Part shown: in pieces, positions 41,801-44,800 of the stretch
Position numbering within the stretch: position 1 is the stretch's first letter
How the letters are laid out: each line of letters begins with the position of its first letter
Notes under the pieces: generated by a model
What the model was told of the DNA's origin: nothing
Seen by the model: the letters and a program-made list of their open reading frames with translations, nothing else
The model's database searches: none
From: Motacilla alba alba
Lineage: Eukaryota; Chordata; Aves; Passeriformes; Motacillidae
Assembly: GCF_015832195.1 (NCBI RefSeq)
Contig: NC_052019.1
Coordinates: 44,953,016 to 45,017,015, forward strand
Length of the DNA stretch: 64,000 nt
Direction: 5' to 3'
Position numbers and translations under genes: made by a program

Positions 41801-44800
41801 TCTCCAGCAATGCCATCGGTCCCCTCGTCGCACTTTGGCTTATCTACGAGCAAGGTGCCGTAATGCAGGAGGCATCGACTCCCATCTGGCTGCTCTTCTA
41901 TGGAGGTGTTGGGATCTGTGTGGGCCTCTGGGTCTGGGGAAGAAGAGTTATCCAGACTATGGGTAAAGACCTCACTCCAATCACACCATCAAGGTAGGTC
42001 CACAGGTGTCATTGTGGTTGTGTGAACTTTGTGTGTGAGCCAGTCTGAGAAATTGCTGTTCCAGTATTTTGTTTGTACTGCAGTTTGCTGGATTTGCTGT
42101 GCTTTGGTTTTAATGATAACCTGGCTTTGACTTCTCCGTCTTTCTAAAAAAAAATGAAAGAAATAAGTGAAAAAGGAGAAAAAGAAAGCATGAGAAAAAG
42201 AAAGAAAAAGAAAGAGAGAAAGGAAAAAGGATAACCCTGTAATACTGAATGTGTTTAAGGCATAGAGGTCTGCATGAACAGACAGCAGAGTCTTCTACTG
42301 ATGACCTAATTAGCATGGTAGAAGGTAATTTGGAAATGGCAAGATTACAGTGGCTTTCCCAGTGTGCTTGGGACCATTAAACCCATATGTATTTATTACA
42401 GTGATTTTTGACTTTAATGCATACTCGACCTCTGCTGGTGCTTAACTGAATTACTAATTAGGCTCGATTCACCGCAGCGTAGCGTAGTGAAGGTCTCTGA
42501 CGCACTGAGCCGCGCAGACGGGGTACTGCCGATGACTAGCCTGTGCCCTTCCCATTGTTCATCCCTTTCTTGTTCTCTTAACTGACTCACATGACCAAAA
42601 ATCAGTTGGAGATAAAACAGTCGAAAGAAGAAACGGGTAAGACTTTGGCACGCTGCATGGTATCAGTCCGAGCTGATGCAAAGAGTGATTGTGAAGTGTT
42701 TTCTTATGCTTCCCGCAGTGGATTCACTATTGAGTTGGCTTCGGCGTTCACAGTTGTGGTAGCTTCCAATGTTGGACTTCCTGTCAGTACTACACACTGC
42801 AAGGTATGCCTTTGCCCAGCGACTGCAGTCAAGGCAGTCTGGACTATTCATCTTAAAATTGTGCTGCTCGAGCCAGGGATAATGGCACGGTGAGGGGAAA
42901 ACAGCCGCTGACAGAGGATGGTTAGGTAGGGGTGCCTCAGCACATCTCGGTCACGCCAGCAACGTGGGAAAGTAATCAGGCTTCCAGAAAATGCGTTGGA
43001 GTTGTCACAGTAAAGTCATTGGAATTGGCCACAGCATAAACTCCATAGCTGCTGGTGAAGAAAAACAGCGCTTGCAAAAAGCCTGACCTCAATTTTAAAG
43101 CAAATGATTGCGAGGAAGAGCCTGGTTTCCTCTGACAGTGCCATTTGAGCCTGGTCGGGTAACATTTCTCCCTTGTTCAGAGGCTGCGCACCATTCATCA
43201 TTTATACTTGACTTTCTTGATAAGTGCATGGCATGGGATTTCCTGCATATAACTCTTTTACTACAGGTTTTCCATCTCTCTTTTTTTATTTTTTTTATTT
43301 CTTCACAGTGGATTTTGCATTGAAGTAATGTGTGCGCTAACGGTACTTGTAGCCTCAAATGTGGGTATTCCAATAAGCTCCACCCATTGCAAGGTATTGG
43401 AGTTTGCAGTGATACTATCAGTAAATCACATCACTAGGACAAACTATAACAAAATCTGGGAGATACCGACTGTTGCAGATTGCCTTCACTGTGCCATGCC
43501 CTGCAGACCATGACCGCAAAATAACGGGGCCCGCTTTTAAAGGCAGTACAGCCAGGCAAAGTCAGTGTTATAACTAATTGCACAAAAGTCTGGACTATCT
43601 TTCACCCCTACGTGGTTGTATTGAACTAATATAGACGTATTAAAATAACGTAGATTCGTAGTCTGTGTGAACCCAGTTACGTGTATTTTAAAACCACCTG
43701 TATGAAAAACACTGCTACATCATTAAGCTAATATTTTAATGTCTCTCTTCTTTTAAACCAACTTGTCCTCACTTTTGTGCATTGTAATACAGAATCCGGC
43801 CCTTGTAATTAGTCCTTTGAACAAGGTACTTTGCTCTTTTGGTTTTTTTGGTTTTTTTTTTAAAGAGCACTTTGTAGTATAGATACAGGCTGGGTAATGA
43901 GCACAATTCAATTGTGTCATGAAGACATTTATATAGCTTGTAGACGTGAGGGAGCATATGGACATTTACACTTCTGGAAGAACATAATGGAAATTTGGAA
44001 TTTTGTTCCCTGGGAAATTCTCAGGTCCAATATCCTGTCTTTTTTCCTTTGTTTCTCCATGGACTCTCAAGCTCCTGGACATGCAGAGCTGTTTGTTTCT
44101 TTCACCCTCTGGCAGGATGTGGGGAAGCCCCTCCAAAATCATAGACCCCAGAATGACAGTCCCTCTGCGTCATTGCATGCCACCAAGAGCAAGTCCTAAA
44201 AAAAGACAGTCCTTGTAGGATTCACTGCTGCACCCTGGGGAGCTAGGAGCCCTGGCTGGGGCTGGGGCTGGGACAGGCTGGTTTCTGGGGATAACTGCTC
44301 CATGGCATGGCAGGCAGGCTGGCAAGAAGCCTGGCAGCCTTGCCTGTGACATTGACCTGCTTTCCAGTAAAAGAGTCAATGAAATCCACACATCCTGCAA
44401 AATGCCCAAAGTTGGTTCAATTGGCCTTTTTCTAGTGCAAACCATTTCTTCAGAAAGCCTTTCTCTATTGCAAAATCATTTATTTCTTCTACCCTGGTGC
44501 TCTTTGAGAAGCAGCCAAGACTGAGCTACCCTGAAAGGCTGTTCAGATTTCCTGGCATTGACAGAACTCTGGTTCCTCTGAATCAAGCAGGGAGGGGAAA
44601 AATAATAACAATGTTATCCACTTTTAAAAAGGCTTGCCTGAAACCACCTCCCTTTAGGCTGACTGGTATATCAAATGCATGATGAAGAATTTGCCAAGGA
44701 GAATAATACAGCTTTGATTATCCCAGTTGTGTGCCTGAAACACTTCTAGCCAACTGTTGTAAAAGAGAAAACATACTTTGGTCCAAACAAATAGACTGAA

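What the first reader, a model, noticed from the sequence alone, without database searches (positions are those of the whole stretch)
42719..43393. Tandemly duplicated, putatively mutually exclusive exon 10 in SLC20A2 (PiT-2)
Seen: two 85-nt exon-like segments, 505 nt apart, have the same phase, GT-AG borders and homologous products (20 of 29 residues identical). Twelve of the 20 shared residues use different codons. That pattern fits an old duplication under purifying selection, not a recent copy or chance. Established: mutually exclusive exon pairs tune other carriers, such as SLC25A3 (IIIA/IIIB) and SLC39A14 (4A/4B). Inference: this bird makes two PiT-2 isoforms differing in one membrane segment of the second PiT repeat. 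I know of no description of such an isoform pair for SLC20A2.
Basis: partly seen in the sequence, partly recalled or inferred. Interest (0 to 1): 0.93.

Follow-up and report, generated by a model that had tools for sequence, protein, structure and literature searches.

The report
Ancient swappable exon in phosphate transporter
A bird's gene for the phosphate transporter PiT-2 (SLC20A2) carries two versions of one exon, likely spliced in one at a time, that encode a predicted membrane segment; closely similar second versions occur in predicted proteins from sharks to a marsupial but in none of the placental-mammal proteins examined, so work on humans and mice would likely have missed it.

Summary
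Exons 10a (42719-42803) and 10b (43309-43393) are 85 nt each, same phase, AG/GT-bordered. Either alone gives an open 652-residue PiT-2; both or neither shifts the frame. They share 20 of 29 residues; synonymous sites between them are saturated.

Of 250 fetched relatives (cluster representatives), 67 carry a 10b-type segment and 180 a 10a-type (one has both, four neither). 10b occurs in birds, reptiles, frogs, bony fishes, sharks, echidna, Tasmanian devil and hagfish; duck and elephant shark 10b are 29/29 identical while the rest of the protein is 80%. Five of six isoform pairs differ only here. A 2.6-kb contig encoding bullfrog 10b protein implies a spliced transcript. None of 88 placental representatives is 10b-type.

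Exon 10 covers published TM9, with two of six residues reported critical for phosphate transport; both are kept. Best reading: an ancient, likely mutually exclusive exon pair that tunes PiT-2, likely lost or unused in placentals. Databases list it as predicted 'isoform X2'; ten literature searches listed no paper on it. Tissue use and functional effect are untested.

The parts
17579..17867 (+). SLC20A2 first coding exon (exon 2, coding part from ATG)
   Evidence: tblastn map and splice assembly
22599..22739 (+). exon 3
23959..24044 (+). exon 4
26103..26199 (+). exon 5
28165..28281 (+). exon 6
28939..29142 (+). exon 7
30588..31176 (+). exon 8
41808..41993 (+). exon 9, shared upstream partner of 10a and 10b (donor AAG|gtaggt)
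42719..42803 (+). exon 10a: SGFTIELASAFTVVVASNVGLPVSTTHCK (A-type)
42804..43308 (+). 505-nt intron between the two alternative exons
43268..43308 (+). pyrimidine-rich acceptor region of exon 10b (contains CTCTCT at 43276)
43309..43393 (+). exon 10b: SGFCIEVMCALTVLVASNVGIPISSTHCK (B-type)
   Evidence: relatives
48370..48534 (+). exon 11, coding part to TGA, shared downstream partner (acceptor CCCAAG|GTT)

Best explanation
Exons 10a and 10b of SLC20A2 are a tandemly duplicated pair that is likely spliced in a mutually exclusive way, giving two PiT-2 phosphate transporters that differ only in and just after predicted transmembrane segment 9 and would differ in transport behaviour. Shown by sequence: either exon alone keeps the frame; both together put a stop 12 nt into 10b, 70 nt before the last junction (expected to trigger nonsense-mediated decay by the usual 50-55 nt rule, recalled), and neither gives a frameshifted C-terminus. 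Shown by comparison: 10b-type segments differ from 10a-type at four positions (573, 577, 583, 594), group with a hagfish and a lamprey form, and keep E575 and S593, residues reported critical for phosphate transport. Inferred: the duplication arose before cyclostomes and jawed vertebrates parted; both isoforms transport phosphate but differ in affinity, ion coupling or regulation because the replaced residues lie near the critical ones; use is regulated by tissue or state; placental mammals lost or silenced 10b. The confidence given is for the exon pair being real and used as alternatives; for the functional tuning I would say about 0.6.
For: Gene model and frame logic. Of 250 representatives (the 120 listed of each, overlaps removed) 67 hold a B-type and 180 an A-type segment, one of them both, 4 neither. 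Isoform pairs of one species on contigs of equal length: in 5 of 6 the proteins differ only inside exon 10 (7-9 residues); the sixth (Vipera) differs also at the C-terminus. Constraint: 10b of duck P0012 against elephant shark 29/29 (rest of protein 80.4%), turtle 29/29 (90.2%), frogs 29/29 twice (83.6%, 84.4%), snake 29/29 (87.6%), echidna 28/29 (87.3%), hagfish 25/29 (68.4%), lamprey 23/29 (70.2%). Common origin: B-types (hagfish Myxine among them) plus lamprey form one split, UFBoot 98 and FastTree 0.976, on 45 distinct 29-residue segments. Transcript: P0036 (source 'lgn', longest contig 2610 bases) is identical over 644 residues to Aquarana catesbeiana isoform X2 P0037; a continuous 644-codon frame from a gene that spans 31 kb here implies splicing; P0039 likewise (670 aa, longest contig 3392). 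Critical residues D28, E55, S113, D506, E575, S593 and TM9 = G571-S593: PMC3126765 (passages). All 250 proteins fitted a search pattern that demands E575 and S593; none failed it.
Against: No junction reads, tissue data or proteomics; mutual exclusivity in RNA is inferred from frame and annotation. 'isoform X2' models are predictions. One model (P0001, catfish) holds both segments, joined by extra residues. The B set was found by similarity to 10b, so its uniformity is partly by selection. In the tree the 10a types do not form a split of their own, and 29 residues cannot place the duplication before or after the PiT-1/PiT-2 split. Only 1 of 6 marsupial representatives is B-type. No device enforcing exclusivity is visible: the intron is 505 nt, the nearest upstream AG lies 42 nt before the 10b acceptor, so no distant branch point is suggested. 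The structure prediction failed (mean pLDDT 38.6), so positions of changed residues rest on alignment.
Confidence: 0.85

Rival explanations
1. 10b is a silent or decoy duplicate that gene predictors include because it looks coding, with little or no real use.
For: No RNA data were available here; isoform X2 models are automatic; the Sarcophilus copy has V588G, seen in none of the other 66 B segments.
Against: 29/29 identity from duck to elephant shark while the rest of the protein is 80.4% identical; four B-only residues in 67 of 67 (the set was chosen by similarity to 10b); a 10b-containing contig matching bullfrog that must be spliced.
Confidence: 0.05
2. Both exons are used but not in a regulated way: the spliceosome picks one, and double-inclusion products are cleared by decay.
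For: Frame logic alone gives exclusivity at protein level; no steric or branch-point device was seen in the one intron available.
Against: Long conservation of a distinct B sequence argues for separate roles; by analogy more than 80% of human homologous exon swaps older than the chordates were tissue-enriched at protein level (PMC9741552, passage).
Confidence: 0.2
3. 10b gives a PiT-2 with lost or strongly altered transport, used for signalling or as a dominant-negative partner rather than as a tuned transporter.
For: The changed residues lie around E575 and S593; transport-knockout PiT2 variants can be dominant negative (PMC5321689, title and start of abstract).
Against: Both critical residues are kept in all B segments, and 10b is about as conserved as 10a.
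Confidence: 0.15

Closest known systems
SLC25A3 exons IIIA/IIIB (mitochondrial phosphate carrier)
   Same: Homologous, mutually exclusive exon pair inside a phosphate-moving carrier; a discussed case in PMC5740500 (passages).
   Different: Unrelated protein family and membrane; known and expressed in humans, whereas no 10b-type protein was seen among the placental representatives here.
SLC12A1 (NKCC2) exon 4 variants and SLC39A14 exons 4A/4B
   Same: Alternative homologous exons in plasma-membrane carriers; functional effects recalled. SLC12A1's third exon is mentioned in PMC9741552, SLC39A14 in PMC5740500.
   Different: Different families; effect on transport measured there (recalled), not here.
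[quoted passage not shown]
   Same: Same class: adjacent homologous exons swapped; most are ancient and ion transport genes are prominent (passages).
   Different: That set starts from human annotation; SLC20A2 has 0 occurrences in its main text (supplements not read). If 10b is absent from the human gene, this is an ancient event such lists cannot contain.
OGDH exons 4a/4b (PMC7969005)
   Same: Ancient vertebrate mutually exclusive pair.
   Different: There exclusivity is enforced by distant branch points in an intron of 118-131 nt in birds and mammals (passages); here the intron is 505 nt and no such device is seen.

Membership tests
Mutually exclusive homologous exon pair | Adjacent exons, homologous, same phase and length | tested here: met
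   85 and 85 nt, 20/29 residues, 505 nt apart
Mutually exclusive homologous exon pair | Each alone keeps the frame; both or none break it | tested here: met
   stop 12 nt into 10b with both
Mutually exclusive homologous exon pair | Both exons conserved across species | tested here: met
   At protein level: 67 representatives with B-type, 180 with A-type, of 250, one with both; 10b duck to elephant shark 29/29. No DNA of relatives.
Mutually exclusive homologous exon pair | Spliced transcripts exist for each exon | tested here: inconclusive
   Of 15 unnamed 'lgn' representatives 2 are B-type and 13 A-type; P0036 equals the bullfrog 10b model; the tool does not say what 'lgn' is; nothing from a bird
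Mutually exclusive homologous exon pair | The two exons never occur together in mature mRNA | not testable with these tools
   No RNA-seq; 1 of 250 protein models (P0001) holds both, by an odd join
PiT / SLC20 transporter | PHO4 family match (PF01384) and similarity to a solved PiT | tested here: met
   PF01384 given for the homologues listed; a 327-residue composite of window exons (isoform A) matches TmPiT 6l85 at 2.4e-66
PiT / SLC20 transporter | Residues reported critical for transport kept (E575, S593 in exon 10) | tested here: met
   Both exons; all 250 relatives fit a pattern demanding them; residue list from PMC3126765
PiT / SLC20 transporter | Isoform B transports phosphate | not testable with these tools
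   needs expression and an uptake assay

The most novel reading that the evidence does not exclude
Vertebrates have run two versions of the PiT-2 transport core since before hagfish and sharks parted, switching transmembrane segment 9 by mutually exclusive splicing to set phosphate or sodium coupling in different tissues; placental mammals then dropped one version, so human and mouse PiT-2 physiology, including brain calcification work, describes only half of the ancestral transporter.
Probability: 0.5. Interest if true: 0.8.

Novelty: new member of a known kind. Interest (0 to 1): 0.68.

Why it matters
PiT-2 is a general phosphate importer, and SLC20A2 mutations are a main cause of familial brain calcification (abstracts). 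A second, deeply conserved version of its transport core in fishes, frogs, reptiles, birds and at least some non-placental mammals is a natural experiment: nine substitutions around two essential residues, largely kept for what must be several hundred million years (age recalled). It makes testable how PiT transporters set affinity and ion coupling, and why placental mammals could do without it. If confirmed, it also shows that catalogues of alternative exons built from human annotation miss ancient vertebrate events.

Tried and rejected
Structure: AlphaFold2 of duck P0012 with 41 relatives gave mean pLDDT 38.6, pTM 0.24; not used, and no fold search was made. RBFOX motif: TGCATG occurs three times in the 1,230 nt of introns 9 and 10a-10b (42271, 42654, 43225); the window as a whole is at chance (63 on both strands against 60.5 expected). 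From the 43 plus-strand hits I reckon by hand about 0.8 expected in 1,230 nt, Poisson about 0.05; with several motifs looked at in one genome I do not use it. Distant branch point: nearest upstream AG 22 nt (10a) and 42 nt (10b); not supported. Competing RNA pairing: among 15 inverted pairs listed, the long ones spanning 10a are low-complexity purine/pyrimidine tracts; left as a note. Second copy in the paralogue: SLC20A1 of the same genome has one exon 10 and no second significant match in the 9,901 bases fetched. Rfam at gathering thresholds: no match. Placental loss: 90% clusters can hide isoforms and annotations can miss exons, so 0 of 88 shows absence from representatives, not from genomes; in the list alone 0 of 82 placental against 14 of 27 other named vertebrates were B-type, but representatives are related and the query was B-type, so the P value there is only a guide. 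Invertebrates: only two invertebrate proteins came up (P0121, P0135), so the age before vertebrates is untested. Literature: ten searches, judged from titles and starts of abstracts of the 10-20 papers listed by each (2); none announces an alternative exon 10 of SLC20A2. The two papers holding both 'SLC20A2' and 'mutually exclusive exon' concern an alternative promoter and a reference-list entry (passages). A grass carp cloning paper (PMC7662828) has no occurrence of 'splic' or 'exon' (passages). The TmPiT structure paper was not held. Only open-licence PMC papers are searchable.

Full report
What is there. The window holds the SLC20A2 coding region from its first coding exon (17579) to its stop codon (48534), mapped by tblastn and assembled with splice sites. 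The joined isoform B is 96.0% identical to the Anas acuta representative P0012 over 652 residues, next best a turtle at 90.7%, so the source is a bird; the genome held is 1.07 Gb. Between exon 9 and the last exon lie two 85-nt exons, 10a (42719-42803) and 10b (43309-43393), 505 nt apart, both with AG and GT borders.

Frame logic. Splicing either exon gives an open 652-aa PiT-2; the two proteins differ at nine positions, all within residues 573-594. Both exons together give a stop 12 nt into 10b, 70 nt before the last junction; neither gives a frameshift with a stop in the last exon. A full-length product needs exactly one of the two.

More than chance. Among 111 open AG-85nt-GT segments in the window (10a and 10b included), none besides those two matches the 10a peptide at more than 6 of 29 positions; 10b matches at 20. 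Of the 20 shared residues 12 use different codons; pS is 0.89 and pN 0.18: an old copy under protein-level constraint. The SLC20A1 paralogue in the same genome shows one such exon in the 9,901 bases fetched.

Relatives. A protein search with the 10b region of isoform B gave 485 proteins, 120 listed; searches with the hagfish protein (3687 proteins, 120 listed) and the Tasmanian devil isoform (2193 proteins among the 7989 candidates scored, 120 listed) brought the set to 250 representatives of 90% clusters. Typed at residues 573, 577, 583 and 594: 180 hold a T/A/V/T segment (10a type), 67 a C/M/L/S segment (10b type), one of these (P0001) holds both, and 4 hold neither: hagfish Eptatretus (S/A/V/T, 10a-like), lamprey (S/S/L/S, 10b-like), a midge and an ostracod. 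The 10b set includes ducks, a turtle, snakes, lizards, frogs, a chimaera, sharks, rays, many ray-finned fishes, echidna, Tasmanian devil and the hagfish Myxine (names). The set was found by similarity to 10b, so the uniformity of its diagnostic residues is partly by selection; the step in score between the types is small but clean (last 10b 79 bits, first 10a 75 bits).

Both versions in one gene. Six pairs of named isoforms of one species on contigs of equal length were compared; in five (Stigmatopora, Phyllopteryx, Phycodurus, Amia, Chiloscyllium) the proteins differ only at 7-9 positions inside exon 10; in the sixth (Vipera) there is also a C-terminal difference. The two hagfish proteins (different species) are 91.6% identical outside exon 10 and 21/29 within it.

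Age and constraint. A tree of 45 distinct 29-residue segments puts all 10b types, hagfish Myxine among them, and the lamprey form on one side of a split with UFBoot 98 and FastTree support 0.976. The 10a types do not form a split of their own, so the tree does not say whether the duplication came before or after PiT-1 and PiT-2 parted. The inference is one duplication before cyclostomes and jawed vertebrates parted. Duck 10b is 29/29 identical to that of elephant shark, two frogs, a turtle and a snake, where the rest of the protein is 80-90% identical; in 13 comparisons the lowest are hagfish 25/29 and lamprey 23/29. Exon 10a is about as conserved: 27-29 of 29 in six of seven comparisons, 25 in Amia.

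Transcript evidence. Two 10b-type representatives (P0036, P0039) come only from short contigs (longest 2610 and 3392 bases). P0036 is identical over 644 residues to the bullfrog isoform X2 model. As the gene has introns, a continuous frame across the coding exons on such a contig means a spliced RNA source (inference; the tool does not say what 'lgn' is, and an intact retrocopy is not formally excluded). No bird transcript was seen.

What it would do. PMC3126765 (passages read) lists D28, E55, S113, D506, E575 and S593 as critical for phosphate transport in human PiT2 and gives G571-S593 as its TM9; numbering agrees with the window protein. Exon 10 therefore covers TM9 and the residues just after it, with two of the six residues. 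All 250 relatives fit a search pattern that demands E575 and S593. The changes in 10b here (T573C, L576V, A577M, S578C, F580L, V583L, L590I, V592I, T594S) lie around them. I infer a working transporter with altered kinetics or coupling, as homologous exon swaps do in other carriers (SLC25A3, SLC12A1, SLC39A14; functions recalled). A usable structure model could not be made.

Placental mammals. None of 88 placental representatives (all four superorders, assignment recalled) is 10b-type, against 64, plus one with both types, of 145 other named vertebrate representatives; within the list 0 of 82 against 14 of 27. Of 6 marsupial representatives 1 is 10b-type; the one echidna representative is. Because clusters hide isoforms and no placental DNA was available, loss of the exon is likely but not shown.

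Splicing control. Nothing decisive was seen: no short intron, no distant branch point, three TGCATG sites near the exons that barely exceed chance, and only low-complexity long complementary tracts. The 10b acceptor has a long pyrimidine tract with CTCTCT.

Novelty. The class is known; the member appears undescribed. It exists in databases as 'isoform X2'. Ten searches of open-licence PMC papers listed no description (titles and starts of abstracts seen); subscription papers were not searchable. The human-based catalogues PMC9741552 and PMC5740500 do not name SLC20A2 in their main texts (supplements not read).

Noticed in passing
42145-42234 and 43268-43299: A purine-rich tract in intron 9 is 70-75% complementary to the pyrimidine tract of the 10b acceptor, across exon 10a; low complexity, one genome, could be chance.
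   Followed up: no
48355-48370: The shared exon 11 acceptor ends in AAG rather than CAG or TAG, a weaker type (recalled) that might matter for exon choice.
   Followed up: no
P0121 (Clunio marinus, 928 aa): An insect protein model holds two PiT units head to tail, suggesting tandem PiT genes merged by annotation; its exon-10 regions have L583 with T594, a mix of the vertebrate types.
   Followed up: no
P0001 (Tachysurus ichikawai, 691 aa): A catfish model carries both the 10a- and 10b-type segments in one frame through extra residues; probably an annotation artefact but a case to check for true double inclusion.
   Followed up: no
P0017 (Sarcophilus harrisii): The marsupial 10b segment has V588G, found in none of the other 66 B segments, a possible sign of relaxed constraint in therian mammals.
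   Followed up: no
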